Notes: a model not told the origin generated them from the sequence alone. Positions 242-25,408 are shown, numbered from the stretch's first letter. The stretch is DNA of 48,842 nucleotides from Draconibacterium orientale (GCA_020721645.1 DYMH01000006.1:1-48842); one strand, 5' to 3'. A program made the numbers and translations.

Positions 242-327
242 AATATCTCTTAACCAAACTATTACAGATGTTTTATGATAGCCGAGCCGATGAATCCGGC
301 ACCGCCGGTGATGAGGATTTTTTTCAT
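242..327 (-). repeat. E1: truncated 5' end of an rmlB-like epimerase gene
   Basis: Reading from an ATG at 327 gives MKKILITGGAGFIGSAIIKHL and then a stop. This is the Rossmann dinucleotide-binding start (GGAGFIGS) of an extended short-chain dehydrogenase. The GSA-I/V-IKH continuation is closest to RmlB (dTDP-glucose 4,6-dehydratase). Similarity to the other copies (E2-E4) runs on in DNA to about ...TTTGGTTAAGAGATAT, roughly 87 nt after the start codon, and then ends. Nothing downstream encodes the rest of an epimerase. The 194 bp between it and the AbiEii stop (328-521) shows no convincing gene. Confidence 0.75.
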
Positions 328-521
328 GTGTTTATATTTTATTTTGGCTACATGGAAGTCCACATTTAGCGGGCTTTGCAGCGTATTTTTACTTTTATCG
401 AATAATCATGCCGTTACTCATTTTTTTTATTATTTTTTGTGTTCGTGAGGGCTTCGCCGTTTTGTGATTTGCCAAAATCATGGACGTTTCATATTGTTTT
501 TGGTTACAAAATTTGAAATAA

Positions 522-1238
522 TTATTGGTTATAATCAACTTGGGCGTTTTCGATAAGGATATTTGTTTTTGACAGGGAGTTATCTGTGCCGATAATAAAA
601 TCATTTGCAATGGTTTTGATGCAATTTTGCAGATAATTAAAATCTTGTGTTTCGGTAAACCATGACACGCGCTCAAAAAGTTCAGTCGGGAAGTTGTTTA
701 TTCTTTGTTCGACATCAATTTCGTTAATCATTGCTTTTTCTTTGGCCGAAAAGAAAATGTCGGACCAATTGAACTTGTAGTTTAACGAAATATGTATGAT
801 ATCAAAAATATCCTTGGGTTCATCCCGGTTGAGGATTGCAGTTAATTTATTTGAAAGAATATTTAACGGTGTATCTATTTTTCCGAAATAGACTTCATTT
901 AAATTGCCGGCATGGTAATTAACGTCATTTACAAATTCGAGTTTTAAAAAAGTGTCGTTTTCTCGGATATAAAAGCGAGAATATCCTTCATAAATCAAGG
1001 TATTTTGTTTTTCTACCGGAAAGTTTTTGTATAATTTCTCCGAAAAATGTTCTATCAGTTGCTTATAATCGTTTCTGTTATTGACAAAAAAATCAAGGTC
1101 TTCACTGTATCGGTGATTGAGATAATATCGACCCAAAGCCGTTTCGCCGGTGAGGTAAAAGGGCATGTCGGCGGTTTTCCAAAATTTCAAAAACTTATCT
1201 TGCAGCAGGTATAATTTCTTGTAATCGTGTTTTAACAT
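522..1238 (-). CDS. AbiEii-type nucleotidyltransferase, putative toxin
   Basis: This 238-residue protein carries the nucleotidyltransferase signature LTGETALGRYYLNHR followed by SEDLDFF, in which the two acidic residues would bind the metal. The layout matches the AbiEii/AbiGii toxin family (PF08843). Members of that family transfer nucleotides to tRNA or other targets and act as toxin or abortive-infection effectors. The start overlaps the upstream partner gene (1195-1497) by 44 bp, which suggests translational coupling of the pair. It is more distant in sequence from the other AbiEii copies in this window (21.3-26.0 kb) than those are from each other, so it probably arrived independently. 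The cassette lies between rmlB-like 5' remnants E2 and E1. The cellular target cannot be read from the sequence. Confidence 0.75.
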   Translation of the reverse strand: MLKHDYKKLYLLQDKFLKFWKTADMPFYLTGETALGRYYLNHRYSEDLDFFVNNRNDYKQLIEHFSEKLYKNFPVEKQNTLIYEGYSRFYIRENDTFLKLEFVNDVNYHAGNLNEVYFGKIDTPLNILSNKLTAILNRDEPKDIFDIIHISLNYKFNWSDIFFSAKEKAMINEIDVEQRINNFPTELFERVSWFTETQDFNYLQNCIKTIANDFIIGTDNSLSKTNILIENAQVDYNQ

Positions 1239-1497
1239 AAGAATATTTTTCCTTTAATGAATCTGTTCTTAATTTGCTTAGGAGAGTATCATTCAAAAGA
1301 TTTTTTATGGTTTCTGTATCAAATATTTTAAGTATTGTAAACCAAGGGAGAGATTCCAACATCTTTCGGAAAAGTGCTTTGAGGTCGTAATGCCCGGCAT
1401 GGTCTGTTTCTCCTTTAATTAGTTTATCAATTTCTTCGGGTGTGATGTCGTAATCCCACATCAGGAGGCGGTAGATCTCTTCTTTTTGCTTATCCAT
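1195..1497 (-). CDS. Putative antitoxin partner of AbiEii (unknown small protein)
   Basis: This is a small, largely helical protein of about 100 residues starting MDKQKEEIYRLLMWDYDI. I chose the ATG at 1497 because the track's earlier start (1518) adds only seven unlikely residues. It does not show the FWDxD pattern of the DUF6922-like partners seen further right, and I do not recognise a named family. Its position directly upstream of the AbiEii gene, with a 44-bp overlap, is the usual antitoxin-toxin layout, so the antitoxin role is inferred from context alone. The gene begins about 85 bp downstream of the degenerate E2b piece. Confidence 0.6.
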   Translation of the reverse strand: MDKQKEEIYRLLMWDYDITPEEIDKLIKGETDHAGHYDLKALFRKMLESLPWFTILKIFDTETIKNLLNDTLLSKLRTDSLKEKYSYVKTRLQEIIPAAR

Positions 1498-1578
1498 CGT
1501 ATTTCTGTTTATATGCAAATATACCTATTTTTGGAAATAGAATAATGCAAAAATGGCAATAATAATTGATGGATCATT

Positions 1579-1724
1579 AATATTTCGTAACTAAACTCTT
1601 ATAAATGTTTTATAACTTCCGGCGAATAGTCTATTGCAAATGTCTCGTAACCAAACTATTGAAGATGTTTAATCACTGCCGAACCGATAAATCCGGCTCA
1701 GGCGGTGATGAGAATTTTTTGCAT
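1579..1724 (-). repeat. E2: truncated rmlB-like 5' end plus a second degenerate copy
   Basis: From the ATG at 1724 the frame reads MQKILITA-stop-AGFIGSAVIKHLQ-stop. This is the same epimerase start as E1, E3 and E4, but with a nonsense codon inside the glycine-rich loop, so it cannot make a working protein. The ATG lies only 4 bp after the stop of the AlbA_2 gene. About 60 bp further on (1579-1627) a second, weaker match to the final part of the same repeat (ATAAACATTT...AGTTACGAAATATT on the coding strand, approximate) suggests a further, more decayed copy (E2b). Both pieces stop being similar at nearly the same place. Confidence 0.7.
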
Positions 1725-1728
1725 ACTG

Positions 1729-2877
1729 TTATATAAAAAGTGTTACTTTAAATTCTTCGCCGAATTCTTCAAATAAGACTGTTTTATGTCTTGACAGGGC
1801 TTCGGAGTAAACCATGGGTAATCCTCTTCCCAACTTGTCGATAAAATTGAGGTTTTCCATAAATTTTACGATGACCGGATTTACGGCATAAGATACGCCG
1901 TATTTCAGTTTATCGGGCGAAACGGTATTGGGCAATTTTCCGGGGCTGATGACTTCCAATCGGTTTTGAAAAAGGAATACTCTTATTTTTGAGCCGAAAA
2001 TTGAGTAATTTCTGTGGCAACTGGCATTTACAATAAGTTCTCTGAAAACTTTGTCAGGATATAGGTTTTCTTTGTTCACACGCTTGTTTCCGATAATGTC
2101 GGACGATTGCATTATGTTGTTCTTGATGATTGCTGTTGTCGTGTTTATTTGATAATCAAGATTCCCTTCAATGTTTTGCTTATCTATCAGTTCCGAATTT
2201 ATTTCGTTGCCCGCAAAATGGGCAAATGAAACGGATGAATTCAGCAAAAATTTTTGTGGATTGATTCCGAATATCAGCAGTCCGGCGACTGTTAAATTGC
2301 CTTCTGCTGATAAAATATCTGTATTTTGCAGTAAAACAGTTTTTTCATCTTCCGTCAGAATGTCGAAATTTAGATTGTAAGCGGAGAAATATGACGAAAG
2401 TTTTTGAAAGTTAAGATTTTTAACCGTGCTGTGGTCAACGGCTGTGGCATCGAAATGATAAACCCCGCTTTGTTGAAACAATCGCATGAGTTCATTGATG
2501 CTTGCCGTGCGGTTGGTTGAGCCGACACGGATATAAAATTTTGAATCATTTGCCTGATACGGTTTGTCTTTTCCTTTTGGTATTTCAACGATACCGATGG
2601 TTTTATTTTCGATTTCGATTTTTTGATATTTTATTTCTGCGGGGGGATTCACGTTGTTTCGGGCAATATTCATGCACCATTCTTCGTAGTTTTTTGACCC
2701 GGGAAGTCCCGAAATATCTCCGTTATCCTCAACGCCGATAAGTATTACGCCACCCGAAAGATTTGAAAATGCCACAATTTCTTTTGCCAAGGATTCGGGT
2801 TTTACATCGGCACTTTTAAATTCCAAAGATGAATTTTCGGATTGTTTGATCAGATCGTAGATTTGGTTTGTGTTCAC
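1729..2877 (-). CDS. AlbA_2/Schlafen-type ATP-binding protein (RecG-like C-terminus)
   Basis: This 382-residue protein has an N-terminal AlbA_2 (Schlafen AlbA-like) domain at about residues 10-130, with ENSSLEFK, the SNLSGGVILIGVEDNG motif and FYIRVGS. Its C-terminal region resembles the 'ATP-dependent DNA helicase RecG-related' family: RELIVNASCHRNY, RLEVISPGKLPN and IDKLGRGLPM, an HATPase-like fold. Members are predicted transcription regulators or nucleic-acid-binding proteins, often found in mobile or defence regions. The exact role is unknown. The start is GTG at 2877, and no ATG alternative is visible. It is flanked by rmlB-like 5' remnants E3 (upstream) and E2 (beginning 4 bp after its stop), so it forms a single-gene cassette in the same array as its neighbours. 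Confidence 0.75.
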   Translation of the reverse strand: MNTNQIYDLIKQSENSSLEFKSADVKPESLAKEIVAFSNLSGGVILIGVEDNGDISGLPGSKNYEEWCMNIARNNVNPPAEIKYQKIEIENKTIGIVEIPKGKDKPYQANDSKFYIRVGSTNRTASINELMRLFQQSGVYHFDATAVDHSTVKNLNFQKLSSYFSAYNLNFDILTEDEKTVLLQNTDILSAEGNLTVAGLLIFGINPQKFLLNSSVSFAHFAGNEINSELIDKQNIEGNLDYQINTTTAIIKNNIMQSSDIIGNKRVNKENLYPDKVFRELIVNASCHRNYSIFGSKIRVFLFQNRLEVISPGKLPNTVSPDKLKYGVSYAVNPVIVKFMENLNFIDKLGRGLPMVYSEALSRHKTVLFEEFGEEFKVTLFI

Positions 2878-2934
2878 TTCTGTTTTTTGTTATTATTCGG
2901 TAAAATTATAAAAATAAACAATATCAATTGCACA

Positions 2935-3019
2935 ATATTTCGTAACCAAACTCTTGCAGATGTTTAATCACTGCCGAACCGATAAAGCCGGCTCCGCCGG
3001 TGATGATAACTTTTTGCAT
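2935..3019 (-). repeat. E3: truncated 5' end of an rmlB-like epimerase gene
   Basis: This is the best preserved of the four copies. The ATG at 3019 opens MQKVIITGGAGFIGSAVIKH, continues LQEFGYEILCN and stops. The intact GGAGFIGS loop and the GSAVIKHLQEFGYE continuation match the first 29 or so residues of RmlB-type dehydratases. The start codon lies 5 bp after the stop of the DUF4143 ATPase gene, which is ordinary operon spacing. The AlbA_2 gene starts about 60 bp beyond the point where the similarity ends. It could express a 31-residue peptide but lacks every catalytic residue of the enzyme. Confidence 0.8.
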
Positions 3020-3024
3020 GCGTA

Positions 3025-4314
3025 TTAATAATTTTTGTTTATTTGAATCAAAAAATCACTCAGTTTCCATGCCTGAATGTGTTTTATACCGCCTTTTTCA
3101 TTAAAAATAAAATCATCCAAACTTACAATTATTTTCGGATAATTATCATGTATTGCCTCCAATGAGGAGTATTCTCTGTTTATTGTTATCTCTTCGGACA
3201 TTAGGTAAGCAACTTGAACGTATATTGTTTGGGTGTTTTTAACTGCAACAAAATCAACTTCTTTATTGCGAAGATATCCGACGTAAACATTAAAGCCGGC
3301 TTGGAGTAGTTGCAGGTAAACGATATTTTCCAATTTATAGCCTATGCCATAAGCAAAGCCGGAATACAAATAATTGTGATACGCCAAATCGTTGATATAA
3401 TATTTGTATGTTCCGGCAAGGGTTTCTTTTCCGTAAATATTATATTTTTCGACTTGATAAATAAGAAAACTGCTTTTCAAATAATTGATATAATTTGCAA
3501 GGGTTTCGTAATTTGTTCGCCTGTTTTTACTTTTAAAATAGTTTACAATATTATTGATTGATAACGGATTAGATGCATTGTTGATAAGAAAAGAAAAAAT
3601 ATCTTCCAATAATTTTGCATCTTTAATTTGGTAGCGTTGAATAATATCGCGAAGGAGTATCGTATCTTTAACCGCTGAAATGTAATGCCTTTTGGTTTCT
3701 TCGTTAGGCAGGTTAAACAATTCGGGCAAGCCTCCCGTGTTCAAATATTGTAAAAAACTTTGCTTCGAATTTTCAAGTTTTAAGAAAGAAATGTATTCGT
3801 TGTATGAAAAAGGGAAAATTTGAAATTGCACATATCGACCCGATAAATATGTAGATAACTCTCCGGACAACAGTTCAGAATTCGATCCGGTTATGAAAAT
3901 TTCAAACTCGCGTGTGTAATCCTGCGAATATGAATTGATTGTTTTTTCCCACGAAGTAACAGTCTGTATTTCATCAAAAAAAAGGTAAATTTTCCCTTCG
4001 GGTTTGATTTCGGAAATATACATTTCGACTAACTGCGATAAATCCGTATGCGATTGAATGAAGTCAAAATCTGTAAATTCTTTGTTGATGTATAAAATAT
4101 TATGAGGAGCTGTACCTTTGCCAATCAGGCTTAGGATAATTTGCCTCATCAAATAGCTTTTACCGGTTCTGCGCTGTCCGACAAGCACTTTAATGAGTTT
4201 GTTTGATATAAAATCGCCAATTTTAAGCAAATATTCTTTCCTGAGAAATCCTGCGTCCGGATTTCTTTTATTCCACAGATTGTATTTTTGAAGAATCGCA
4301 ATTTTATCAGACAC
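3025..4314 (-). CDS. AAA_14/DUF4143 ATP-binding protein
   Basis: This 429-residue protein has a Walker A loop (VGQRRTGKSYLMRQ, about residue 45), a Walker B segment (IYLFFDEIQTV), the FITGSNSELLSGEL sensor-like motif and, towards the C-terminus, a DUF4143 region with KEVDFVAV, which resembles a restriction-endonuclease-like fold. Bacteroidota and other prokaryotes carry many paralogues of this family. They are suspected toxin/defence-like or regulatory ATPases, with no established reaction. The start is GTG at 4314. It stands alone between rmlB-like 5' remnants E4 and E3. A second full-length member is at 9123-10412 and the 3' end of a third at 4485-4870, all in the same kind of position. Confidence 0.8.
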   Translation of the reverse strand: MSDKIAILQKYNLWNKRNPDAGFLRKEYLLKIGDFISNKLIKVLVGQRRTGKSYLMRQIILSLIGKGTAPHNILYINKEFTDFDFIQSHTDLSQLVEMYISEIKPEGKIYLFFDEIQTVTSWEKTINSYSQDYTREFEIFITGSNSELLSGELSTYLSGRYVQFQIFPFSYNEYISFLKLENSKQSFLQYLNTGGLPELFNLPNEETKRHYISAVKDTILLRDIIQRYQIKDAKLLEDIFSFLINNASNPLSINNIVNYFKSKNRRTNYETLANYINYLKSSFLIYQVEKYNIYGKETLAGTYKYYINDLAYHNYLYSGFAYGIGYKLENIVYLQLLQAGFNVYVGYLRNKEVDFVAVKNTQTIYVQVAYLMSEEITINREYSSLEAIHDNYPKIIVSLDDFIFNEKGGIKHIQAWKLSDFLIQINKNY

Positions 4315-4420
4315 AGCTTACAATTTTGTCAAAATTACAATATTTTCAGTTGTAACCAAAAATATTGCGTGTATTTTTTTACCATCTGACTTTTATGACA
4401 CCATCTTAATGTATTGTCTT

Positions 4421-4481
4421 GTGTTTAATCACTGCCGAGCCGATAAACCCTGCACCGCCGGTGATGGGGATTTTTTTTCAT
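4421..4481 (-). repeat. E4: truncated, frameshifted rmlB-like 5' end
   Basis: The ATG at 4481 is followed by eight A residues. Removing one restores MKKIPITGGAGFIGSAVIKH, the same epimerase start as E1-E3. As written the frame is broken directly after the start. Similarity ends after KH, slightly earlier than in the other copies. The ATG is 3 bp downstream of the stop codon of the DUF4143 3' remnant, again the tight spacing seen at E2 and E3. Confidence 0.65.
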
Positions 4482-4484
4482 GTT

Positions 4485-4870
4485 CTATAATCTGAGAATA
4501 TACGGTTGGATATAGGATTGATTATCATGAGATTCAATCAGATTTTTATTGATGATGTAACTTTTTTCGATTTCCTTATCCTTAGAAAACTCAGTTATTG
4601 CTCTTATTTTGTTGTGATTTTTGAAGTCTTTATATTTCACTTCTACGGGAATTAACCTATTATTATTATAGTTTGAAATTATAAAATCAATTTCAACAGC
4701 GTCTTTTGTTTTTTAATAAAATATTTGATTTTGCTTACGGTTTTGTAATAATTGCAGATAGACGAAATTTTCGAAAATTTGTCCGTTATCAACTCTTATC
4801 GAGATGTCGTTGAAACTGTTGTAGATAATGTTTCGCAAGTTTTTATAAGTTTTCAATTCGGATATTAAAA
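4485..4870 (-). pseudogene. DUF4143 ATPase, C-terminal remnant
   Basis: No long ORF is listed here, but the minus strand reads (from about 4870) DYFLISELKTYKNLRNI, then DNGQIFENFVYLQLLQNRK, a stop in a disrupted stretch near 4715, then DAVEIDFIISNYNNN and PVEVKYKDFKNH, ending ...YIQPYILRL-stop at 4485. ENFVYLQLL, VEIDF and PVEVKY are the typical C-terminal (DUF4143 / nuclease-fold) landmarks of the ATPase family at 3025 and 9123. The ATPase half and the upstream boundary are missing. This is a decayed cassette gene that still sits directly against remnant E4. Confidence 0.7.
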
Positions 4871-4905: not shown

Positions 4906-5205
4906 ATGCAAACACAATTGACATTGAATATTGATAATCAAGCAGCCGAACTTGCAAATTATTATGCAAAAGAAAAAGGTGTATCCATAAACGAACTTTT
5001 TGAGAATTACATTCGTTTAATTGTTCTGAACGAGCAACTGTACAAATTGGGAACAGCCGAAATAAGCTCAATTTTTCTAAAATACAAACAAAATTTTGGA
5101 CTTAAAAAAACAAATTGGAAAGAACTTGATGAACATTTAAATCCCATAAGACATGGTTTGCCTGTTGATTTTAAATTTGACAGAGATATAGCAAATGAAA
5201 GATAA
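4906..5205 (+). CDS. Putative antitoxin of a PIN toxin (RHH-like, DUF6364-type)
   Basis: This 99-residue protein has an N-terminal TQLTLNIDNQAAELANYYAK followed by KGVSINELFENYIRLI, the strand-helix-helix pattern of ribbon-helix-helix antitoxins of the DUF6364 type. It overlaps the PIN gene downstream by 11 bp, which points to translational coupling. The family role is to bind and neutralise the partner RNase and to repress the operon; the specific assignment is inferred. Together with the next gene it is the only plus-strand coding pair in the first 32 kb. It lies downstream of a DUF4143 remnant on the opposite strand. Confidence 0.7.
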   Translation: MQTQLTLNIDNQAAELANYYAKEKGVSINELFENYIRLIVLNEQLYKLGTAEISSIFLKYKQNFGLKKTNWKELDEHLNPIRHGLPVDFKFDRDIANER

Positions 5206-5602
5206 TGTATTTATTGATACAAATATTTTGGTTTATTTCGCAACTGATAAAACCGAAAAACGAGATATAATATTAACTAAACTTGCTGAATGTGAGTATA
5301 GTTACATTTCAATTCAGGTTTTAAACGAATTCAATAATAGTTGTTTCAAAAAATCTTTATTGAAACCAGATGAAATTGAATTTGCATTAAACGAATATAC
5401 AAAAATGTTCAATGTTGTTATACTGAATATCGCAACGATTATTGATGCATTGCGATTAAAACAAAAATACGGCTATTCGTATTACGACAGTTTGATAATC
5501 TCAACAGCATTGCAAAATGATTGTAAAATACTTTATTCGGAAGATATGCAACATACACAGAAAATTGATGATAAATTGACAATTCTAAATCCATTCAAAT
5601 AA
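5195..5602 (+). CDS. PIN-domain RNase toxin (VapC-like)
   Basis: This 135-residue protein is full length for a VapC-type PIN domain. Visible acidic residues are D8 in FIDTNILVYF, a glutamate in QVLNEFNN, an aspartate in YGYSYYDSLIIS and the terminal SEDMQH motif. These match the metal-binding set of PIN ribonucleases, which cleave RNA in the cytoplasm. The sequence is clearly related to the PIN protein at 20041-20457 (shared DTNILVY, SVQV/SIQV-NEF, YDS/WDSLIIS-ALQN, EDMQH). Its upstream antitoxin gene overlaps by 11 bp, as in the other pair, although the two antitoxins look different. That suggests partner exchange or strong divergence. Confidence 0.85.
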   Translation: MKDNVFIDTNILVYFATDKTEKRDIILTKLAECEYSYISIQVLNEFNNSCFKKSLLKPDEIEFALNEYTKMFNVVILNIATIIDALRLKQKYGYSYYDSLIISTALQNDCKILYSEDMQHTQKIDDKLTILNPFK

Positions 5603-7038: not shown

Positions 7039-7948
7039 AATGCCTAAAATTTTTTGATTTCAGAAAGCCGACAAAGCGTTGGAATTTTACCCTTCGCTTA
7101 TCGGAAAAGATTGAAATAATTGCGGTAAAAAGCAGACCAAAGAAAAACAATGCATTGTATAAAACCAAATCTTTTTTTTGCTTAAATTTTCCAAAGAAAT
7201 AGCGCATGCCGAAAGAATTGTCTAAATCTAAATACATTCTAACGACCAAGTTTGCCGTACCTGTTCCGCCTTTGGATTGATTGTGAATAACCGTAGCTGT
7301 CGGAGTTTGGATAATACGTTTGCTTTCTGTTACAATAGATTTGCATAAATCGACATCAGATACATAAATAAAATAGGTTTCGTCGAGTTTTCTATTGTTT
7401 TCAAACAAAATCGCGGCACCGGCAGGTTGTTCAACGGGCTGATTTTCATTGAAATCCATTCCGAAACATGTGTATTTTCGATAAGATTCAAATTTGTTCC
7501 AATACTTTTTCGGTACGAAACTTTCGACAAACAAAGCAAAAGGTTTTGGAAATGTGCGTGTATAATTTTGAATCGAACCGTCCGGATTTAACAGAACGGG
7601 TGCAACTGCTCCGATTTGTTCGGAACTTTCGAAGGCGGAAACGAGATTTTGTATCGTGTTTTCGGTTATCGCGGCATCGGGGTTAAGTAAAAAAATGTAT
7701 TTTCCATTTGCAATTTCAATGCCTTGATTATTTGCTTTTGTGAAACCCTGATTTTTGTTGTTCAAAATCAATTTCAACTTTTCTATATGTTTGTTCAAAA
7801 GTTCCTGTGTGCCGTCTTTGGAATTGTTGTCCACAATAATGTGCTCGCAGTGTTGTCCGTATTTTGCAACAGATTCTATGTTTTTTTCTATCAAATCGGC
7901 ACAGTTGTATGTTACTGTGATTACGGAAACGGATATATTAGTGTTCAT
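7028..7948 (-). CDS. Glycosyltransferase family 2 (WbbL-like)
   Basis: This 306-residue enzyme starts ISVSVITVTYNCADLIEKNI and carries HIIVDNNSKDGTQEL, the NQGFTKANNQGIEIANG block, LNPDAAI as the DXD region, and DETYFIYVSDVDLCKS as the catalytic-base region. A hydrophobic C-terminal stretch (ALFFFGLLFTAIISIF) suggests membrane association. It is a polysaccharide chain-building transferase. It overlaps both neighbours by 11 bp (7028-7038 and 7938-7948), so three GT2 genes form a tightly coupled block. Its resemblance to the next gene downstream suggests that consecutive sugars of the repeat unit are added by related enzymes. Confidence 0.87.
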   Translation of the reverse strand: MNTNISVSVITVTYNCADLIEKNIESVAKYGQHCEHIIVDNNSKDGTQELLNKHIEKLKLILNNKNQGFTKANNQGIEIANGKYIFLLNPDAAITENTIQNLVSAFESSEQIGAVAPVLLNPDGSIQNYTRTFPKPFALFVESFVPKKYWNKFESYRKYTCFGMDFNENQPVEQPAGAAILFENNRKLDETYFIYVSDVDLCKSIVTESKRIIQTPTATVIHNQSKGGTGTANLVVRMYLDLDNSFGMRYFFGKFKQKKDLVLYNALFFFGLLFTAIISIFSDKRRVKFQRFVGFLKSKNFRHFEL

Positions 7949-8867
7949 TCCAAATTTCTTCTAATTTTTTTGTTGTCGTATTTTGATTTTTTAAAAAGGG
8001 ATTTACTGCTTTTTTCAGTATCAATTTTAAATATACTGAAAAAAAACTAATGCCGGTGCTTGACAGTCCTTTATTCATTTCCATAAAAAAATTTGCCGAC
8101 TTTGCTTTTATCATAAACAAACCGAGTGCGTAAAAATAGTTTTTCTTTTGTTCGTTATAAATTGCGGATTTTTGCAATAATGTGTAGATATTGACTAATG
8201 CTTTAACCATTGCATTGTCCATTTTTGCTTGGTTTACTGTCATGCTTGTTTTCCGTACTCTAACCATCGACAATGTTTCCGGAATATGGGCAAATCGAGA
8301 ACCGGATAAAGCCATTCGAAGCCATAAATCCCAATCTTCCAACTCACGGTATGTAGGGTTAAAATTACCGACAGCATTCACTTTTTCACGCCTCACCATT
8401 ACGGAATTGACGTGCAGAAAGTTCCCAAACCACAGATTTTGCAATACATCACCTTCGAAAACAGGAAACTCTGCAGGAAATGTATTTTGAATATCATTTT
8501 CAATAAAATTGATTGATTTTGAGTAACATACATCAATTTCAGGATGCGAATCCAAATAAGCGGATTGTATTTGAAGTTTATCGGGCAAAATTATATCATC
8601 TGAATCCAAAAAAACCAAATATTCTCCGGAACTGTTTTCTATTCCGGTGTTTCGGGCACCGGCTAAGCCTTTGTTTTTTTGATAGATGTATTTTATTGAC
8701 GAATATTTTTCGAGATAGGGTATTACGATTTCTTTTGTGTTGTCGGTTGATTCATCGTCTATTATAATAATTTCATATTCAGACATTGTTGATTTCAAAA
8801 CAGAATCTATTGCATCCGGTAGGTAGTGAGCAGTGTTGAAGGTGGGTATTATGATTGAGTTTTTCAT
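7938..8867 (-). CDS. Glycosyltransferase family 2 (GT2-B), intact copy
   Basis: This 309-residue family-2 transferase reads MKNSIIIPTFNTAHYLPDAI, IIIIDDESTDNTKEI, NKGLAGARNTGIENSSGEYL, the DXD motif FLDSDD, and RELEDWDLWLRMAL as the region around the catalytic base. It is full length. The important context is upstream. A DUF4143 ATPase gene (9123-10412) lies 255 bp before it, and beyond that ATPase is a truncated duplicate of this gene's first 32 or so codons (10496-10627). The intact gene therefore looks like a rebuilt copy downstream of an inserted cassette. It overlaps the next GT2 by 11 bp. Confidence 0.87.
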   Translation of the reverse strand: MKNSIIIPTFNTAHYLPDAIDSVLKSTMSEYEIIIIDDESTDNTKEIVIPYLEKYSSIKYIYQKNKGLAGARNTGIENSSGEYLVFLDSDDIILPDKLQIQSAYLDSHPEIDVCYSKSINFIENDIQNTFPAEFPVFEGDVLQNLWFGNFLHVNSVMVRREKVNAVGNFNPTYRELEDWDLWLRMALSGSRFAHIPETLSMVRVRKTSMTVNQAKMDNAMVKALVNIYTLLQKSAIYNEQKKNYFYALGLFMIKAKSANFFMEMNKGLSSTGISFFSVYLKLILKKAVNPFLKNQNTTTKKLEEIWNEH

Positions 8868-9122
8868 TTTTTTTAATCAGCTTCTAAAAAAGATATTTTT
8901 CGTAATTTTTAAATTATAATATTCAATTTTACTTTCATCAATTAAAAAAATGTCGATTTAACAAAACTTACAGCAAAACTTCGCCGATACAGCGTAGCTT
9001 TCACGAAATAAGCATAAGAACCTATCTCTCGCACGATTATACTCTGAAACATTTGTATTTTTTTCAATAGTCGTTATAATTTTTATTTGCAATGAAACGA
9101 TTCATGACTTTAACGCTTGTTA
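8868..9122. promoter_or_regulatory. AT-rich leader of GT2-B, new upstream region
   Basis: This 255-bp spacer lies between the DUF4143 ATPase stop and the GT2-B start, unusually long for this otherwise overlapping operon. No ORF is convincing. It presumably came in with the ATPase cassette and now has to supply expression of GT2-B and the genes after it. I could not single out a clear promoter box. Confidence 0.3.
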
Positions 9123-10412
9123 TTATATTAATATCTTATCAAGTATAAATTTATAAGCCGGAATTATTGATATTTCGATGTCGTTAATTTTTTCGTATGC
9201 TTGCTCATCGTAGGTAACAATGACTGCTTTTTTTGTTTGTAAATACTCACATGCAGTTACCAAACCTTTTATTTCTCGTTGCTTAGTATCGGAGTTTTGA
9301 ATAGAATAGCTCACTTGTACAGGCAAAAATTTGTTTTTTTCTTGGATAATAAAATCACATTCCACTATGTTTTTAAAATAGCTGATTTCTTTGTTTTGCT
9401 TTAGTATTTCTAAGGCTATTAAATTCTCTAAAAGTTTTCCTTTGTTTTCGGAGAACGAATAATCTAAGGCTGTTAAAATTCCGTTATCTACTGAATATGC
9501 TTTTTTTTCGCTTTTTACTTGTTTTATTTCGGAAAAATCAAATTTATTGATTACAAGTGCTGTAAAAGTTGATTGAATAAAGTCTAAATATTCGTACAAA
9601 ACATTGTTACTTATTTTATAACCTATTGATTTAATGTCGTTATGAATTTTGTTAACTGAAATAGGCTTAGTAACTTGCTTTAATATTTTTTTGATAAAAA
9701 ATTTTAAAATAGCGGGGTGCGAAATATTATATCTTTCAATTAAATCTTTATATATTATTGTATTAAAATAATCTTGTAATTTTCGGGTTTTAAGCTCATT
9801 ATCTAATTTGCAAATTTCGGGAAAACCTCCGTAGAAAAGAAACTTGTCAAAAAGTGATAATATTTCAATTTTTTGTTTTGTACCGTAATATTCTGCTTTT
9901 GTATCGTGAAAAGATAGAAACTCACTAAAACTGAGAGGGTAAAGTGTATAACTGATAGTTCTGCCTCGCAATTCGGTTGCAATTTCGGTACTTAATAACT
10001 TTGAATTAGAGCCGGTTATAAAAATATTGGTCGTTACGGTATCGAAAATACGTCTGACAAATTTTTCCCAACCGGGAACATTTTGAATTTCATCGAAAAA
10101 AAAATAACAATTATCAAGTTTATTTTGCGGAAATAATTCCATAAATGCTTGTAAAATCAAGTCTAAATCGGATTGTTTTAAATTTAAGCGTTCGTCTTCA
10201 AAATTTATGTAAAGAATTTGATTTTTAGGGATTTCATTTTTTAAAAGTTTTTTAATTGTTTGATAAAGTAAAAATGTTTTCCCGCTCCTTCTCACACCTA
10301 TTACAGTAACAATAATACCGGTATTTATCGGCAAATCTAATTGCCTGTTATAACTATTTTTCAAGTTATCGGTCTGAAAATTAATGATTATATTTTTTAT
10401 AATATCTTTCAT
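9123..10412 (-). CDS. AAA_14/DUF4143 ATP-binding protein
   Basis: This 429-residue protein has Walker A VIGVRRSGKTFLLYQ (about residue 40), Walker B CYFFFDEIQNVPGWEKF, FITGSNSKLLSTEIATELRG, YPLSFSEFLSF and a C-terminal DUF4143 / nuclease-fold part (ENLIALEIL, VECDFII, PVQVSYS). It has the same layout and length as 3025-4314 but is clearly diverged, so it is not a recent duplicate. The function is unproven; the family is common in mobile and defence-rich regions. It is the only gene between the truncated GT2-B 5' end (10496-10627) and the intact GT2-B, so it is the cassette inserted in that operon. Confidence 0.82.
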   Translation of the reverse strand: MKDIIKNIIINFQTDNLKNSYNRQLDLPINTGIIVTVIGVRRSGKTFLLYQTIKKLLKNEIPKNQILYINFEDERLNLKQSDLDLILQAFMELFPQNKLDNCYFFFDEIQNVPGWEKFVRRIFDTVTTNIFITGSNSKLLSTEIATELRGRTISYTLYPLSFSEFLSFHDTKAEYYGTKQKIEILSLFDKFLFYGGFPEICKLDNELKTRKLQDYFNTIIYKDLIERYNISHPAILKFFIKKILKQVTKPISVNKIHNDIKSIGYKISNNVLYEYLDFIQSTFTALVINKFDFSEIKQVKSEKKAYSVDNGILTALDYSFSENKGKLLENLIALEILKQNKEISYFKNIVECDFIIQEKNKFLPVQVSYSIQNSDTKQREIKGLVTACEYLQTKKAVIVTYDEQAYEKINDIEISIIPAYKFILDKILI

Positions 10413-10425
10413 GGCGTAAAGCTAC

Positions 10426-10454
10426 AAAAGTTTCGCCAATTTAACGAAAGTTTT
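10426..10454. promoter_or_regulatory. Imperfect inverted repeat upstream of the DUF4143 gene
   Basis: AAAAGTTTCG (10426-10435) and CGAAAGTTTT (10445-10454) form arms that match at nine of ten positions around a 9-bp spacer, 13 bp upstream of the ATPase ATG. A further CAAAAGTTT/AAACTTTTG pair (10425-10433 and 10479-10487) overlaps it. The position fits an operator or an autoregulatory site of the cassette gene, but AT-rich DNA produces such pairs by chance. Confidence 0.3.
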
Positions 10455-10495
10455 AGCAAAAATTTCGTTGTACTGACTAAACTTTTGCGGGTAAA

Positions 10496-10627
10496 TTATA
10501 AAAGACTGATATACAATTCTTCATTCCGGGTTTCATAATCTGTAAATGACTTTTTTAAAACATAATCAAGAGCATCGGGCAGATAATGGGACGTGTTGTA
10601 AGAGGGGATTATGATTGAGATTTTCAT
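10496..10627 (-). pseudogene. GT2-B': truncated 5' end of GT2-B
   Basis: From the ATG at 10627 the frame reads MKISIIIPSYNTSHYLPDAL, then DYVLKKSFTDYE, and then leaves the family and stops after 43 codons. The first 32 residues align with intact GT2-B at 8867 (MK-SIIIP-NT-HYLPDA-D-VLK---YE), so this is a second, non-identical copy of the gene start. It lies 5 bp after the stop of the GT2 gene at 10633, which is normal operon spacing. That suggests the truncated copy occupies the original gene position and the intact one was displaced downstream by the ATPase cassette. Confidence 0.8.
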
Positions 10628-10632
10628 CTGTA

Positions 10633-11580
10633 TTATTTTACAATATTTTCCCACAAACGTGTTATTCCAAAACCTTTTTTAAAGGTAAAACCAAACTTGT
10701 TAAAAAGGTAAAACAAAAATATCGTAAAACCGGAAATTTCTTTCTCATTTTTCTTAAAAATACGGTAATATTCTTTAACCGGTTTAAATGTTTTAAGTTT
10801 ATAGAAAAATAAAATGGCGTGCATTGTATTATAAAAAAATGTTTGCAGATGTTCGGTTGAATTTAGCTTTCTCACATCGGAGACATATAGAAAAAGACCG
10901 TTAATCATTTTATCCAATGCTTCTTTTTTGTATTTAATTTCATTTGGGGTTAAGCGATAGAAACAATCCGGCTTGGTATCATTAAATACGTCAAATGACG
11001 GTTTGTATTTTAATAATATTTTTGTATGAAATTCAGGATCTTGCAGGCGTTGGTATCTTTCGTCAAATCGTATATTATTATTTTTCAGAAACGAGGATCG
11101 CCAGATTGGGCAAGTTATAGCCCAAGATAAGTCATATTTTAAAAACATTTCTAAATATTCGTTGTTTTGGCAATATTTATTTACTAACGTACCAGTATCG
11201 CCGGGCGTTTTGCGGAATATTTCCATTTTGAACACGGCAAAATCCAATTGCGAATTGGTTTCCATGTATGCTACTCTTTCATCAACGCACTTCGGAGCAA
11301 GCAAATCATCGGAATCTAAAAAAATAACATATTCCCCATTTGCCTCTGAAATTCCGATATTTCGGCACGCAGAAGCTCCCTTGGGTTGTGTTTCTCTATA
11401 CTTTATACTCACTCGACTGTCGTGTTTTATAAAATTCCCTGCAATTTTTGCTGATTCATCGGTCGAGCCGTCGTCAATAATTATTATTTCGATATTTTTA
11501 TATGTCTGATTTAAACACGACTCTATTGTCTCGGAAATGTATTTTTCGGAATTGAACAGAGGGATAATGATTGAAACCAT
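10633..11580 (-). CDS. Glycosyltransferase family 2
   Basis: This 315-residue GT-A enzyme shows MVSIIIPLFNSEKYISETIE, EIIIIDDGSTDES, GASACRNIGISEANGEYV and the DXD motif FLDSDD. The region RLQDPEFHTKILLK likely holds the catalytic base. It lies 7 bp downstream of the GT4 gene at 11588, in the same operon. The truncated GT2-B' start lies 5 bp beyond its stop. It is a polysaccharide-assembly transferase; the sugar specificity is not readable. Confidence 0.86.
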   Translation of the reverse strand: MVSIIIPLFNSEKYISETIESCLNQTYKNIEIIIIDDGSTDESAKIAGNFIKHDSRVSIKYRETQPKGASACRNIGISEANGEYVIFLDSDDLLAPKCVDERVAYMETNSQLDFAVFKMEIFRKTPGDTGTLVNKYCQNNEYLEMFLKYDLSWAITCPIWRSSFLKNNNIRFDERYQRLQDPEFHTKILLKYKPSFDVFNDTKPDCFYRLTPNEIKYKKEALDKMINGLFLYVSDVRKLNSTEHLQTFFYNTMHAILFFYKLKTFKPVKEYYRIFKKNEKEISGFTIFLFYLFNKFGFTFKKGFGITRLWENIVK

Positions 11581-14079: not shown

Positions 14080-14867
14080 TTAATATTAAAAAAGTTCCGA
14101 TAAAACTTACTTTTAAGAAACTTGCTGTATCGCTGGATAAGCCTTGAATTCCTGTATATTAAAAGCTCTGAAAGATTTTTTTTATAAGTCAAATAAAAAT
14201 CAAGTTCCTCAGGGAAGTACTTTGATATTATTTTTTGTCTTTCATTTTCTTTATTAAGTAATTGTGTTTGGCTTACACCATTCAAATCAAAATAGACACA
14301 GTTTATATCAAGGTATTCATATGTGCATTTTTCGATTATGATTTTTTTTATAAAGAAATCATAATCAGATAGTATCTTGTAGTTTTCGTCGTAAAGGGTG
14401 TTTTTAAGTAAATCTGATTTTAAATACGTTGATGGGTGCCCGATATTACTTGTCAGAAAGAATGTTAATGAAAGTTTAGCCGGAAATTTCCAATTCTTAG
14501 CATGTGTGCGTACATTACAATACATTAAATCCTTATTTTGATAAGTTTCGAAAATTGCCCTCAGGACTCCTTCATCAACCAACCAATCCCCCGAGTTCAA
14601 AAACTGACAATACTCCCCCTTTGCAACCTTAATGCCTTTGTTCATGGCGTTATAAATGCCTTTATCCGGTTCGGAAACCCAATAGATGATTTTATCGGCG
14701 TATTGTTTTATGATTTCTACACTGCCGTCAGTACTTCCGCCATCTATGATGATATATTCATAATCCGTAAAAGTTTGAGAAATAACACTTTCGATGGTCT
14801 TTGTCAGACCTTCAGCATTGTTGAGGTTTACTGTAATTATGGAGAGTTTGGGCGTATTAGAGTTCAT
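14076..14867 (-). CDS. Glycosyltransferase family 2 (GT2-A), intact copy
   Basis: This 263-residue enzyme reads NTPKLSIITVNLNNAEGLTK, YEYIIIDGGSTDGSVEII, WVSEPDKGIYNAMNKGIKVA, LNSGDWL (DXD-like) and LSDYDFFIKKI. It is of the WcaA/WfgD-like type with the EPDKGIYNAMNKG block. It is the only complete member of a set of about seven gene starts in the window that share PKLSIITVNLNNA. The other six are truncated 5' copies at 15296, 21108, 22205, 23195, 24220 and 25330. The region just upstream carries a decayed AbiEii/DUF6922 cassette and then one truncated copy. It overlaps the downstream 444-residue gene by 4 bp. Confidence 0.88.
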   Translation of the reverse strand: MNSNTPKLSIITVNLNNAEGLTKTIESVISQTFTDYEYIIIDGGSTDGSVEIIKQYADKIIYWVSEPDKGIYNAMNKGIKVAKGEYCQFLNSGDWLVDEGVLRAIFETYQNKDLMYCNVRTHAKNWKFPAKLSLTFFLTSNIGHPSTYLKSDLLKNTLYDENYKILSDYDFFIKKIIIEKCTYEYLDINCVYFDLNGVSQTQLLNKENERQKIISKYFPEELDFYLTYKKNLSELLIYRNSRLIQRYSKFLKSKFYRNFFNIK

Positions 14868-14912
14868 TGAGAAATTGCTTGTTTTTATCTATACCTTTTT
14901 TTCCGATAACAT

Positions 14913-15014
14913 TTACTTGTTGTCGAGTGTTGAAAAGCATTCGATGCAGCTAAAACTCTGCAAGTTTTTTAGAAGTTCCAGTGTACTTGCTTCGATTGTA
15001 TTTTTGTATAGCAT
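14913..15014 (-). pseudogene. AbiEii toxin, N-terminal remnant
   Basis: The minus strand from the ATG at 15014 reads MLYKNTIEASTLELLKNLQ, matching the beginning of intact AbiEii genes (MLYYKTIEQDTLDILKKIQ at 21922), and ends at a stop after 33 residues. The nucleotidyltransferase motif VGGTALAL and everything after it are absent. Intact GT2-A begins 45 bp further on. The remnant overlaps the DUF6922-like gene by 46 bp exactly as in the intact pairs, so this is a cassette that lost its toxin. Confidence 0.75.
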
Positions 15015-15274
15015 TTAAATTCATTTTTAGGGATATTCAAAAATATGCTTGCAAAGTTTAATGTTTTTTTATCTAAAAATCCGGCTTTAACGATTTCTTG
15101 TTTAATCGTTTCTACGCCATAAAATTGTATAACAATCTGTAAATCTTGCAAATTGCCTCGCGTAAAAACACGTTCGATAATTGTTGTTTTGTTCTTCTGA
15201 AAATCTAAACTTTTTCTGTCTATATCCCAAAAAAGGTGTTCGGATAAATTGTTTATATCAAATTCTATGTTCAT
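14969..15274 (-). CDS. DUF6922-like antitoxin, toxin partner deleted
   Basis: This 101-residue protein shows HLFWDIDRKSLDFQKNKTTI, IIERVFTRGNLQDL and YGVETIKQEIVKAGFLDKKT, the DUF6922 pattern that accompanies AbiEii toxins. It is intact and strongly similar to 21877-22182. It is followed by only the first 33 codons of the toxin. A truncated GT2 5' end (15296-15393) lies just upstream and shares with the 22.2 kb locus the same TTTACAGG...AATAAAATC spacer before this ATG. The antitoxin role is inferred from context. Confidence 0.75.
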   Translation of the reverse strand: MNIEFDINNLSEHLFWDIDRKSLDFQKNKTTIIERVFTRGNLQDLQIVIQFYGVETIKQEIVKAGFLDKKTLNFASIFLNIPKNEFKCYTKIQSKQVHWNF

Positions 15275-15295
15275 AAAACAGATTTTATTTTTAAA

Positions 15296-15393
15296 ATACC
15301 TGTAAAATATTGACTAACAACGCTTTCAATGGTTTTCTGCAAGCCGGCAGCGTTGTTGAAGTTTACTGTGATTATGGAGAGTTTGATGAGCAT
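15296..15393 (-). repeat. Truncated GT2-A 5' end (copy h)
   Basis: The ATG at 15393 opens MLIKLSIITVNFNNAAGLQK, continues TIESVVSQYFTG and then runs into the DUF6922 leader. It aligns with the first 34 or so codons of intact GT2-A (LSIITVNLNNAEGLTKTIESVISQTFTD). The similarity ends directly after the SQ-FT codons, as in copies d and f. The wecE stop is 76 bp upstream. Confidence 0.75.
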
Positions 15394-18704: not shown

Positions 18705-19939
18705 TCTACGGGTATTTTAAAATAACCATTTTCTCTATCGCCTTCCTTAAATTCTTCTTGTGTTAAATTAATAATGTTTAGATTTATTTTGTCGCTCGGT
18801 AAATCTAATATTTTAATTTTAGGAATATCTAATGCCAAACCGATTTTATATAAATTTGCAATTAATAGATTACCTGGTATTTTAATAGTCCAAGTTTTAA
18901 TTCCTATAAAATCCAACTGTCTTCTGTTTATAAATATTAAATTATCGTACTTATCTTGTATTGAAAAATTCAAACGTGCGTTTTCTTGATAATAGTCGTT
19001 TCTAAGGGTTATGTTTACAAAAATCTCTTGCTCTGCGAAATATTCAATCACAACATTCTTATCTTTATCTTTCAGTTCAACTTTAATTATTTGTGTCGCT
19101 TTACTCTCATCTTGTTTGTAGAATATAGTTGAAATATTTTGGTCAGTTGAGTTTGTATTTAAATATTTAGTTAAAGTTTCGTCTATTCCCCCTTCAAAAA
19201 TCAGTTTTCCGTTTTGCAAAACCACGCCCTTGTTACACAACGCCTTTATACTCCCCATATTATGACTCACAAACAACACAGTCCTCCCCCCTTCCCTCGA
19301 AACATCCTGCATTTTTCCGATGGCTTTTTTCTGAAATTCGGCGTCGCCCACTGCAAGCACTTCGTCCACCACCAAGATTTCGGGTTCTAAATGGGCAGCA
19401 ACGGCAAAGGCGAGGCGAACGTACATTCCGCTGCTGTAACGTTTTACGGGTGTGTCCACGTATTTGGCTACGCCGGCAAAGTCGATAATTTCGTCGAATT
19501 TGGATTTTATTTCTCGTTTAGTCATGCCGAGGATTGCCCCGTTAAGGAAAATATTTTCTCTACCTGTCAATTCGGGGTGAAAGCCGGTGCCTACTTCGAG
19601 CAAACTTGCAATACGACCGTTTACTTTTATGCTGCCGGTGGTTGGTCCGGTAACGCGGGAGAGTATTTTGAGCAAAGTTGATTTTCCTGCTCCGTTTTTG
19701 CCAATGATTCCGAGTATTTCGCCTTTTTTTACCTCTAAGTTAATGTCTTTGAGAGCCCAAACCAAGTCGCCGTCCACAGTATCGAGGCGGTTTGTTTGCC
19801 CGATTTTAAGTGTCGGATCTTCCTTGCCGCGAATTTTTGCAAACCATCGGTTGAGGTCGTGGCTGAGTGTTCCGGTACCTATTTGCCCGAGGCGGTACTG
19901 TTTGGAAAGGTTTTCTATTTTAATGGCAAGGTCGGACAA
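18692..19939 (-). CDS. wzt: O-antigen/polysaccharide ABC exporter ATPase Wzt
   Basis: This 415-residue protein has an N-terminal nucleotide-binding domain (to about residue 250) with Walker A IIGKNGAGKSTLLKIL, signature YSSGMYVRLAFAVA, Walker B ILVVDEVLAVGD and an H-loop at FVSHNMGS. A C-terminal beta-rich Wzt domain (about 270-415, KVELKDKDKNVVIEYFAEQE...) binds the chain terminus. With Wzm it exports finished polysaccharide across the inner membrane; no wzm is visible in the window. The start is TTG at 19939: an in-frame TAA lies 12 nt upstream and all four copies of this gene start keep the TTG. Three truncated 5' copies lie at 20770, 23661 and 26754. The first 195 or so nt with leader are almost identical to W2, while the next 70 nt are not. 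Confidence 0.92.
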   Translation of the reverse strand: MSDLAIKIENLSKQYRLGQIGTGTLSHDLNRWFAKIRGKEDPTLKIGQTNRLDTVDGDLVWALKDINLEVKKGEILGIIGKNGAGKSTLLKILSRVTGPTTGSIKVNGRIASLLEVGTGFHPELTGRENIFLNGAILGMTKREIKSKFDEIIDFAGVAKYVDTPVKRYSSGMYVRLAFAVAAHLEPEILVVDEVLAVGDAEFQKKAIGKMQDVSREGGRTVLFVSHNMGSIKALCNKGVVLQNGKLIFEGGIDETLTKYLNTNSTDQNISTIFYKQDESKATQIIKVELKDKDKNVVIEYFAEQEIFVNITLRNDYYQENARLNFSIQDKYDNLIFINRRQLDFIGIKTWTIKIPGNLLIANLYKIGLALDIPKIKILDLPSDKINLNIINLTQEEFKEGDRENGYFKIPVEWEI

Positions 19940-19973
19940 AATAATTATGAATTATGAGTTATGGATGGTGGGG

Positions 19974-19981
19974 CAAAAATA
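19974..19981 (-). promoter_or_regulatory. Bacteroidota-type -7 box of wzt (TATTTTTG)
   Basis: On the minus strand TATTTTTG fits the Bacteroidota -7 consensus TAnnTTTG, 34 bp before the TTG start. The same octamer is kept in all four copies of the wzt 5' region (19974-19981, 21010-21017, 23841-23848, 26941-26948), which supports function. No clear -33 TTTG was seen. Between box and start codon lies a run of 7-bp GAATTAT-like units whose number differs between copies. Confidence 0.6.
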
Positions 19982-20040
19982 GTAAAAATTTTGTTTATTG
20001 TCGTTTCTGCGATGAAGTCTTATGGTAAAATTGTGTCTGT

Positions 20041-20457
20041 TTAATGGATGAACGGATTTATTATTTGTAATCTGTTCTCAATAATTTGTTGATGTTGCAT
20101 GTCTTCTGTGTATAGGATTGAGCAATTATTTTGTAATGCAGCAGAAATAATTAAACTATCCCAATAAGAAAAACCGTATTTTTCTTTTATTTTTAAACAC
20201 AGTTTTATGTCAGAATAATTTAACGGAGTAACGTTAAATAATTTAGATATTTCAATGATATTGTTCTTAATATTTTTGTGTTCAATTTTATTTTTAAACA
20301 GAACTGAATAAAATTCGTTGATAACTTGTACACTTACAAAAAATGTGTTTCCTAAGTTAAGAGAAAACAGCTCTTTAATCTTTTTTTGTTTGTCATTATT
20401 CTGTAGAATGTATCCATAAACAAGAATATTTGTATCAATAAAAATATTATCTTTCAT
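20041..20457 (-). CDS. PIN-domain RNase toxin (VapC-like)
   Basis: This 138-residue PIN domain has FIDTNILVYGYI, QVINEFYSV, YGFSYWDSLIISAALQ and YTEDMQH, supplying the expected acidic metal ligands. It is related to the PIN protein at 5195-5602. It overlaps its antitoxin by 11 bp. The pair is the whole content of the cassette between the truncated wzt copy W2 and intact wzt. The promoter in the W2 copy could drive it. The predicted activity is sequence- or structure-specific RNA cleavage; the target is unknown. Confidence 0.85.
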   Translation of the reverse strand: MKDNIFIDTNILVYGYILQNNDKQKKIKELFSLNLGNTFFVSVQVINEFYSVLFKNKIEHKNIKNNIIEISKLFNVTPLNYSDIKLCLKIKEKYGFSYWDSLIISAALQNNCSILYTEDMQHQQIIENRLQIINPFIH

Positions 20458-20769: not shown

Positions 20770-20975
20770 TTAAAAACGGTGTCTTTGAGAGTTCGTACAT
20801 ATTCGCCGTCCCCGGTATCGAGACGGTTGGTTTGTCCGATTTTAAGTGTCGGGTCTTCCTTGCCGCGAATTTTTGCAAACCATCGGTTGAGGTCGTGGCT
20901 GAGTGTTCCGGTACCTATTTGCCCGAGGCGGTACTGTTTGGAAAGGTTTTCTATTTTAATGGCAAGGTCGGACAA
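20770..20975 (-). pseudogene. W2: truncated 5' copy of wzt with promoter
   Basis: The TTG at 20975 opens the wzt frame (SDLAIKIENLSKQYRLGQIG) and follows it to about residue 64 (LKD), then diverges to a stop. From 20839 to about 21033, including the leader and the TATTTTTG box, I see a single base difference from the intact copy at 19801-19996. From 20770 to 20838 the two differ at many positions. This abrupt change in identity suggests recombination or gene conversion. The Walker A motif lies beyond the break, so no ATPase could be made. The antitoxin-PIN cassette follows. Confidence 0.85.
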
Positions 20976-21107
20976 AATAATTATGAATTATGAGTTATGG
21001 ATGGTGGGGCAAAAATAGTAAAAATTTTGTTTTGAGCGAGGGTTTTATAAGAAACTGTTTTCTTTTCATTAAACAGAGAATATTCTCCTTTTGTCTGCAA
21101 AATTGTG

Positions 21108-21296
21108 TTTGTCGGGTTCTGAAACCCACTAAGCAAGTTGGTCGGCATGTTTTTCGATGATTTCGCAGCTGCCATCGGTGCTGCTGCCGTCGATGATGAT
21201 GTACTCGAAAGTGGTAAAAGTTTGCGATACAACGCTTTCTATGGTCTTTTGCAAGCCGGCGGCGTTGTTGAGGTTTATTGTTGAGAGTTTCGGCAT
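21108..21296 (-). pseudogene. Truncated GT2-A 5' end (copy g), longest copy
   Basis: The ATG at 21296, 5 bp after the AbiEii stop, opens MPKLSTINLNNAAGLQKTIE, then EYIIIDGSSTDGSCEIIEKH, an in-frame stop, and WVSEPDK before similarity to GT2-A ends. A two-codon deletion in SIITV and the nonsense codon make it non-functional. At about 63 codons it is twice as long as the other truncated copies. The promoter and start of W2 follow within 100 bp. Confidence 0.8.
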
Positions 21297-21301
21297 TAAA
21301 T

Positions 21302-21922: not shown

Positions 21923-22182
21923 AAGAATTTTTCTTTTGGTATTTTAGATAATAATGAAATAAAAGTTATGGATTTTTCATCCAAATCTCTGGCATTCATG
22001 GCGATTTTCGCTATTTCATCTATTCCGTAGTAATTGTATATAATATCCCAATCGTTTATTAAGCCGTAATCAAGAACATTTGTAATAATCGTTTTCTTAC
22101 TTCTTTCAAAGTCGAGATTATTTCTATTTACGTCCCAAAACAGATGTTTTGAAAAATTGTTTATATCAAATTCTTTGCTCAT
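21877..22182 (-). CDS. DUF6922-like antitoxin partner of AbiEii
   Basis: I chose the ATG at 22182 (MSKEFDINNFSKHLFWDVNR), because the track's extra 18 residues are read-through from GT2 copy f. It has the DUF6922 pattern: FWDVNRNNLDFERSKKTIIT, NVLDYGLINDWDI, YYGIDEIAKIAMNARDLDEK. It is about 101 residues and overlaps the toxin by 46 bp. It is the closest relative in the window of 14969-15274, including a shared short leader. The antitoxin role is inferred. Confidence 0.75.
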   Translation of the reverse strand: MSKEFDINNFSKHLFWDVNRNNLDFERSKKTIITNVLDYGLINDWDIIYNYYGIDEIAKIAMNARDLDEKSITFISLLSKIPKEKFLCYTTKQLNRTHWIY

Positions 22183-22204
22183 AAAATTGATTTTATTTGT
22201 AATT

Positions 22205-22300: not shown

Positions 22301-22310
22301 AATAAGTAAA

Positions 22311-23187: not shown

Positions 23188-23194
23188 TGATTTT

Positions 23195-23220: not shown

Positions 23221-23260
23221 AAAGTATCCCGCAAAAATACGAAATTTTATGTTTTTTTTC

Positions 23261-23652: not shown

Positions 23653-23660
23653 TTCTGTAA

Positions 23661-25401: not shown

Positions 25402-25408
25402 AAGTAAA

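What the first reader, a model, noticed from the sequence alone, without database searches (positions are those of the whole stretch)
7938..10627. GT2-B is displaced by a DUF4143 ATPase: old start upstream, rebuilt gene downstream
The truncated start (10496-10627) follows the previous GT2 gene by 5 bp, the normal operon spacing. The intact gene now lies 1.8 kb further on, with a 255-bp leader. The first 32 residues correspond but are not identical, so the intact 5' end probably came with the cassette and was not copied locally. This is the cleanest single-insertion example in the window.
Basis: partly seen in the sequence, partly recalled or inferred. Interest (0 to 1): 0.7.

Follow-up and report, generated by a model that had tools for sequence, protein, structure and literature searches.

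The report
Defence-gene cassette flanked by gene-end copies
A single candidate anti-phage gene sits at the start of a sugar-transferase gene, with a stump of that gene left on its far side, and the same gene-end scar recurs around such genes in related bacteria, which suggests they spread by recombining into the ends of ordinary genes without any recombinase of their own.

Summary
On the minus strand, a 32-codon GT2-B start (ATG at 10627) follows GT2-A by 5 bp. A 1.66-kb insert follows, carrying one AAA_14/DUF4143 ATPase (PADLOC 'PDC-S01', an untested defence candidate), and then the intact GT2-B. The two starts match at 21/32 residues and 73% of bases.

It is one case of a wider pattern. Direct repeats flank 25 of 86 DUF4143 loci, mainly from this family's genomes, against 3 of 100 same-size control genes (p=5e-7). 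The repeats are often gene ends (hutI, hisH, rfbB, glycosyltransferases). hutI occurs with and without the cassette in sister species.

Plain local copying does not fit. Three loci show a near-identical core (59-188 nt) that turns abruptly into diverged homologous sequence next to the cassette. Across 22 copy pairs, 55% of differences are at third codon positions.

Best model: small cassettes arrive joined to a gene end from another genome, and host homologous recombination places them at the same gene end. Closest known: insertion with long target duplication (restriction-modification genes) and homology-facilitated illegitimate recombination.

The parts
10633..11580 (-). GT2-A, intact family-2 glycosyltransferase (315 aa) upstream of the fragment
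   Evidence: Pfam PF00535 7.6e-35
10496..10627 (-). GT2-B 5' fragment (old start): 32 homologous codons to ~10532, then 11 unrelated codons and a stop
   Evidence: repeat D11
10413..10531 (-). left arm of the cassette, carrying the ATPase promoter region; the element CGAAAC-TTTTGTA just before the ATG is shared with the relatives L032 and L033
   Evidence: L032-L033 0/300 shuffles; focal-L032 1/300; focal-L033 6/300
9123..10412 (-). AAA_14 + DUF4143 ATPase, 429 aa, PADLOC PDC-S01 (candidate phage defence); Walker A GVRRSGKT; nuclease motif E-D-QxS instead of E-D-ExK
8868..9122 (-). right arm / 255-nt leader between the ATPase stop and the intact GT2-B
7938..8867 (-). intact GT2-B (309 aa); its first ~96 nt are the second copy of the gene start
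8771..8875 (-). right copy of the flanking direct repeat (partner 10531-10635), 72% identity
   Evidence: D11
19744..19996 (-). in-window comparison case: right copy of the Wzt 5' end (57-nt leader + 65 codons)
   Evidence: D1 95%; 188/188 identical then 13/65 mismatches
20780..21032 (-). in-window comparison case: left copy (fragment) of the Wzt 5' end, with the PIN-type gene 20041-20457 between the copies
2961..3016 (-). one of four sugar-epimerase (rfbB-like) 5'-end copies (others 269-324, 1666-1721, 4422-4477) separated by a DUF4143 ATPase (3025-4314), a Schlafen/AlbA_2 gene (1729-2877) and an AbiEii-type gene (522-1238)
   Evidence: D8

Best explanation
A small self-contained cassette (own promoter plus one ATPase gene, mostly 1.3-1.8 kb) moves between genomes joined to an end of the gene it sits next to. 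Host homologous recombination between that carried gene end and the same gene in a new host places the cassette at that gene's end. Because the exchange on one side and the joint on the other overlap within the same target segment, the gene keeps a working copy on one side of the cassette and a stump is left on the other. Shown: the flanking gene-end repeats, their enrichment, sister genomes without the cassette at hutI, and the mosaic structure of the repeats at three loci. Inferred: DNA uptake plus host recombination as the route, and selection for cassettes that leave the neighbour gene intact. In the focal case the fragment is the recipient's old GT2-B start and the intact start probably came with the cassette. 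No mobility function is inferred for the ATPase, because toxin-like genes without it show the same scars in this window.
For: (1) Flanking direct repeats (score >=35) at 25/86 DUF4143 loci vs 3/100 control genes vs 4/800 mispaired flanks, Fisher p=5e-7. (2) Where a gene can be recognised, repeats are 5' ends of the downstream gene or 3' ends of the neighbour; at >=80% identity they are 32-156 nt long (median 62) around cassettes of 1.29-1.96 kb with one ATPase ORF. (3) hutI-ftcD intervals without the cassette in G003, G004, G008, G010 and G000; occupied in G009 and G012; in G005 and G011 a hutI 3' fragment also lies beyond the ATPase. G011's distal fragment runs into intergenic DNA that matches G010's. 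(4) Mosaic repeats, mismatches in core vs margin: window Wzt 0/188 vs 13/65, L114-2 1/134 vs 8/21, G012 0/59 vs 5/15 (each permutation p=0.003); the Wzt and L114-2 margins hold synonymous differences. (5) Third-position share 55% over 293 differences in 22 pairs, vs 33% neutral (1e-14) and vs 46% for a neutral-fragment mixture (7e-4). (6) Relatives of the same ATPase lie beside other genes: L032 (83% id) and L033 (72%), the latter with its own GT 5'-end stump.
Against: No donor genome carrying the inferred foreign gene end was identified. The mosaic is significant at three loci only (L114-1 p=0.073; focal p=0.32). Several repeat-flanked loci have non-coding repeats for which the model says little. 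ComEC was not detected by Pfam in the fragmented genome, although DprA was. The mixture null used a rough assumption about relative rates. Most loci are from draft assemblies.
Confidence: 0.5

Rival explanations
1. Plain insertion with long target duplication, as described for restriction-modification genes: the insertion copies ~60-150 bp of the target locally, the gene keeps a full copy, and the stump then decays.
For: Near-identical cores much closer than other species' genes (G012 hutI 59/59 where other members of its genus share 79-84% over the gene); the leader is included in the Wzt repeat; G011 and G005 fragments show decay-like changes; repeats of order 100 bp are the described signature (PMC3874152).
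Against: Abrupt change from identity to diverged homologous sequence beside the cassette at three loci, and the third-position excess over a neutral-fragment mixture.
Confidence: 0.27
2. Homology-facilitated illegitimate recombination as single events: one end of incoming DNA (cassette plus neighbour gene) pairs by homology inside the gene, the other end joins illegitimately inside the first or last codons, with no special cassette.
For: Explains the focal anatomy: native spacing at the stump, donor-like intact start, divergence along all 32 codons. Duplications of 109-950 bp arose at a homologous anchor in an E. coli test (PMC3240628).
Against: The joints lie close to the ATPase gene in most cases (right arm often 0-40 nt), and diverged homology continues on the stump side.
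Confidence: 0.15
3. The stump belongs to a different GT2 gene that was once intact between GT2-A and GT2-B; the ATPase replaced its 3' part, and GT2-B was always downstream.
For: GT2 starts are conserved across the family; no relative with GT2-A and GT2-B adjacent was found; identity is only 73%.
Against: The stump is closer to GT2-B (21/32 residues, HYLPDA block shared) than to GT2-A or to the 50%-identical GT2-B relative in L189; stumps elsewhere match their adjacent gene.
Confidence: 0.07

Closest known systems
Insertion with long target duplication of restriction-modification genes (Nobusato et al. 2000; summarised in PMC3874152, PMC1643837)
   Same: A short addictive or defence gene set inserted in the chromosome with direct repeats of the order of 100 bp and no known element carrying it
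   Different: Here single-gene DUF4143 ATPases and toxin-like genes; repeats are often gene ends and at three loci are mosaics with a foreign margin rather than pure target copies
Homology-facilitated illegitimate recombination (e.g. PMC3240628)
   Same: Foreign DNA anchored by homology on one side; partial gene duplications reported as a by-product
   Different: Known as a rare laboratory event; here repeated use of compact cassettes with recurring targets (hutI, hisH)
Serial displacement of T6SS effector genes with orphan immunity arrays (PMC5361080)
   Same: New module inserted at a conserved gene, old end displaced and kept, arrays build up
   Different: Orphan ends there are whole immunity genes with a proposed use; here the stumps are dead gene ends and the cargo is unrelated to the target gene
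PDC-S01 phage-defence candidate (PADLOC; PMC12988326)
   Same: The two window ATPases match PDC-S01 models (2.5e-109 and 7.6e-139) and have the described ATPase plus PD-(D/E)XK-type C-terminal half
   Different: Defence activity is untested; how these genes move was not stated in the passages read

Membership tests
Insertion with long target duplication | Insert flanked by direct repeats of order 100 bp | tested here: met
   32-156 nt, median 62, at >=80% identity; focal 105 nt at 72%
[quoted passage not shown]
   hutI-ftcD in G003, G004, G008, G010, G000; not found for focal GT2-A/GT2-B
Insertion with long target duplication | Both repeat copies derive from the target site itself | tested here: not met
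   Mosaic repeats at three of five loci tested; third-position excess
Homology-facilitated illegitimate recombination | One homologous junction and one illegitimate junction | tested here: inconclusive
   Homologous margin on the stump side at three loci; the other joint looks sharp at some and diverged-homologous at L114-1
Transposon or site-specific integrative element | Encodes a transposase or recombinase | tested here: not met
   The cassette holds one AAA_14/DUF4143 ORF; cassette sizes at other loci leave no room for a second large gene
PDC-S01 ATPase family | Match to PADLOC PDC-S01 models over the full length | tested here: met
   PDLC04787 2.5e-109 over residues 19-425
PDC-S01 ATPase family | Anti-phage activity | not testable with these tools
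   Described as a candidate; validation pending for most PDCs (PMC12988326)
PD-(D/E)XK nuclease | E-D-(E/Q)xK catalytic motif | tested here: not met
   Focal protein has E329, D353, Q366-x-S368; QxS/A/T/C occurs in 27 of 86 family members, ExK in 56

The most novel reading that the evidence does not exclude
A class of recombinase-free mobile cassettes that use ends of ordinary host genes as portable addresses: each cassette carries a short piece of its target gene, which directs host recombination to the same gene in new species, renews the duplication at each move, and lets cassettes stack at one gene (rfbB, GT2, hutI).
Probability: 0.3. Interest if true: 0.8.

Novelty: new variant of a known kind. 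Interest (0 to 1): 0.6.

Why it matters
How single-gene defence and toxin-like genes move without mobile elements is an open question; the long-repeat scar has been described mainly for restriction-modification genes. This gives a testable scar (gene-end repeats with a foreign margin), an orthologous locus with and without the insert across sister species (hutI), and ties a very common but untested defence candidate (PDC-S01, DUF4143) to frequent movement into gene ends. It also warns annotators that short GT or epimerase starts near such genes are stumps, not genes.

Tried and rejected
GT2-B relatives in the same family (none at 1e-40) and in 393 genomes of the order (one, 50% identity) gave no strain with adjacent GT2-A/GT2-B. 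The one genome-contig scan gave three ATPase relatives. AbiEii loci from relatives: 4/20 with repeats but 19/300 in mispaired controls, so no clear enrichment. Phylum-wide sample: 4/28 vs 3/500, two clear gene-end cases, L204 and L219. Focal leader similarity to L032 vanished when the coding start was left out (75/500 shuffles). No PDB relative of the ATPase by sequence. The rfbB pairs were one base out of frame; corrected. A neutral local-duplication model for all loci was considered and judged insufficient because of the mosaic margins.

Full report
Observation. Every element in the finding is in the sequence. Reading the minus strand, GT2-A (10633-11580) is followed after 5 nt by an ATG (10627) that opens 32 codons resembling the start of GT2-B, then unrelated sequence and a stop at 10496. 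Next come ~118 nt upstream of an ATPase gene (9123-10412), a 255-nt leader, and intact GT2-B (7938-8867). The two starts share 21/32 residues and differ at 26/96 bases.

The inserted gene. It has AAA_14 and DUF4143 domains and matches PADLOC PDC-S01 (2.5e-109), a single-gene phage-defence candidate that is very common and not yet validated; a 2026 survey describes it as an ATPase fused to a PD-(D/E)XK-superfamily domain (PMC12988326). Across 86 relatives the Walker A glycines and lysine are invariant, but the C-terminal motif splits into ExK (56) and QxS/A/T/C (27); the focal protein is QxS. A text search for DUF4143 returned one paper.

Is it general? For 86 DUF4143 loci (mostly from 21 genomes of the window's family) I compared 1.5 kb upstream with 0.7 kb downstream. 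A flanking direct repeat scoring at least 35 occurs at 25/86, against 3/100 genes of similar size from the same genomes and 4/800 mispaired flanks (Fisher p=5e-7). Recognisable repeats are gene ends: 5' ends of the downstream gene (hisH in L008 and L062, glycosyltransferases in L033 and L114, window GT2-B and rfbB) or 3' ends of the neighbour (hutI in L052, L097, L100; L020; L102; L107). Others are non-coding. At >=80% identity repeats are 32-156 nt (median 62), cassettes 1.29-1.96 kb, and the right end often lies 0-40 nt after the ATPase stop. In a phylum sample 4/28 pass, two of them clear gene ends in other families (L204, L219).

Empty and occupied sites. In G003, G004, G008, G010 and G000 hutI is followed directly by ftcD. 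In G012 the order is hutI, ATPase, hutI 3' fragment, ftcD; G009 is similar with extra DNA. In G005 and G011 a homologous ATPase (374 aa) in the opposite orientation lies between hutI and a hutI 3' fragment. The G011 fragment runs into intergenic DNA matching G010, whose hutI is 94% identical, so the distal piece is the native end.

Copied locally or brought in? G012's two copies are identical over 59 nt while hutI of other members of its genus share 79-84%, which argues for local duplication. But three loci show an abrupt change inside the repeat: window Wzt 0/188 then 13/65 mismatches, L114-2 1/134 then 8/21, G012 0/59 with 5/15 at the edge (each permutation p=0.003). In L114-2 and Wzt the margin includes synonymous changes (e.g. 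Ser TCA/AGC, Leu CTG/TTA in L114-2). A purely local copy would not have such a margin. Summed over 22 copy pairs, 162 of 293 differences (55%) are at third positions; interspecies hutI gives 71%, neutral decay 33%, a crude mixture 46% (p=7e-4). The simplest reading is that cassettes arrive with a foreign copy of the gene end next to them, recombine into the resident gene, and the overlap between the two joints duplicates a stretch of resident sequence.

The focal case. There is no near-identical core (29/105, p=0.32). Third-position differences are 15/26: above neutral (p=0.009), compatible with coding divergence (p=0.11) and with a mixture (p=0.15). The stump keeps GT2-like residues and has no stop in its homologous part. 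Local duplication followed by long decay, and a stump of another GT2 gene, remain open. The nearest ATPase relatives (L032 83%, L033 72%) sit beside other glycosyltransferase genes; L033 has a 5' stump of its own neighbour and a further copy upstream of a zeta-toxin-like gene.

Rest of the window. The same scar surrounds other genes: four rfbB-like starts separated by AbiEii-type, Schlafen/AlbA_2 and DUF4143 genes; several GT2 starts with AbiEii-type genes; Wzt starts around a PIN-type gene. The phenomenon is thus not specific to DUF4143, though enrichment was not shown for AbiEii loci elsewhere.

Limits. Genomes are mostly draft assemblies; no donor was identified; the route of DNA entry is inferred (DprA found, ComEC not detected). 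Two genomes may share one ancestral insertion, so loci are not all independent. Gene names such as hutI, ftcD, hisH, rfbB and Wzt are my readings of the translations, not database assignments.

Noticed in passing
window 242-4830 (-): Four or five copies of an epimerase (rfbB-like) 5' end, none leading into an intact gene, separated by AbiEii-type, Schlafen/AlbA_2 and DUF4143 genes; a decayed DUF4143 C-terminal piece lies at 4632-4790. The nearest intact match in the family is in G020 (78% over 32 residues).
   Followed up: partly
window 14749-15384 and 21196-25408 (-): Repeated GT2 5' ends (PKLSIITVNLNNAEGL) next to AbiEii-type genes and small partner ORFs; the junction from GT2 stump to partner ORF looks shared between 15284 and 22191, as if the stump travels with the cassette.
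   Followed up: partly
window 22996-23632 and 26084-26725 (-): A ~3.1-kb spaced duplication holding glycosyltransferase 3' ends (87%) and partner ORFs.
   Followed up: no
window 4906-5602 (+): A two-gene unit whose PIN-like second gene starts almost like the PIN-type gene at 20041-20457 on the other strand (inverted repeat I1, 42 nt, 90%).
   Followed up: no
L169, L170, L171, L172: The last 20-25 codons of hutI are a recurrent insertion place for different DUF4143 ATPases, in either orientation, in four species of one genus.
   Followed up: yes
L032 1-43, L033 2074-2151, window 10413-10530: A conserved element (CGAAACTTTTTGTA.TTTTGC) just before the ATPase start in relatives 72-83% identical, probably promoter or operator.
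   Followed up: partly
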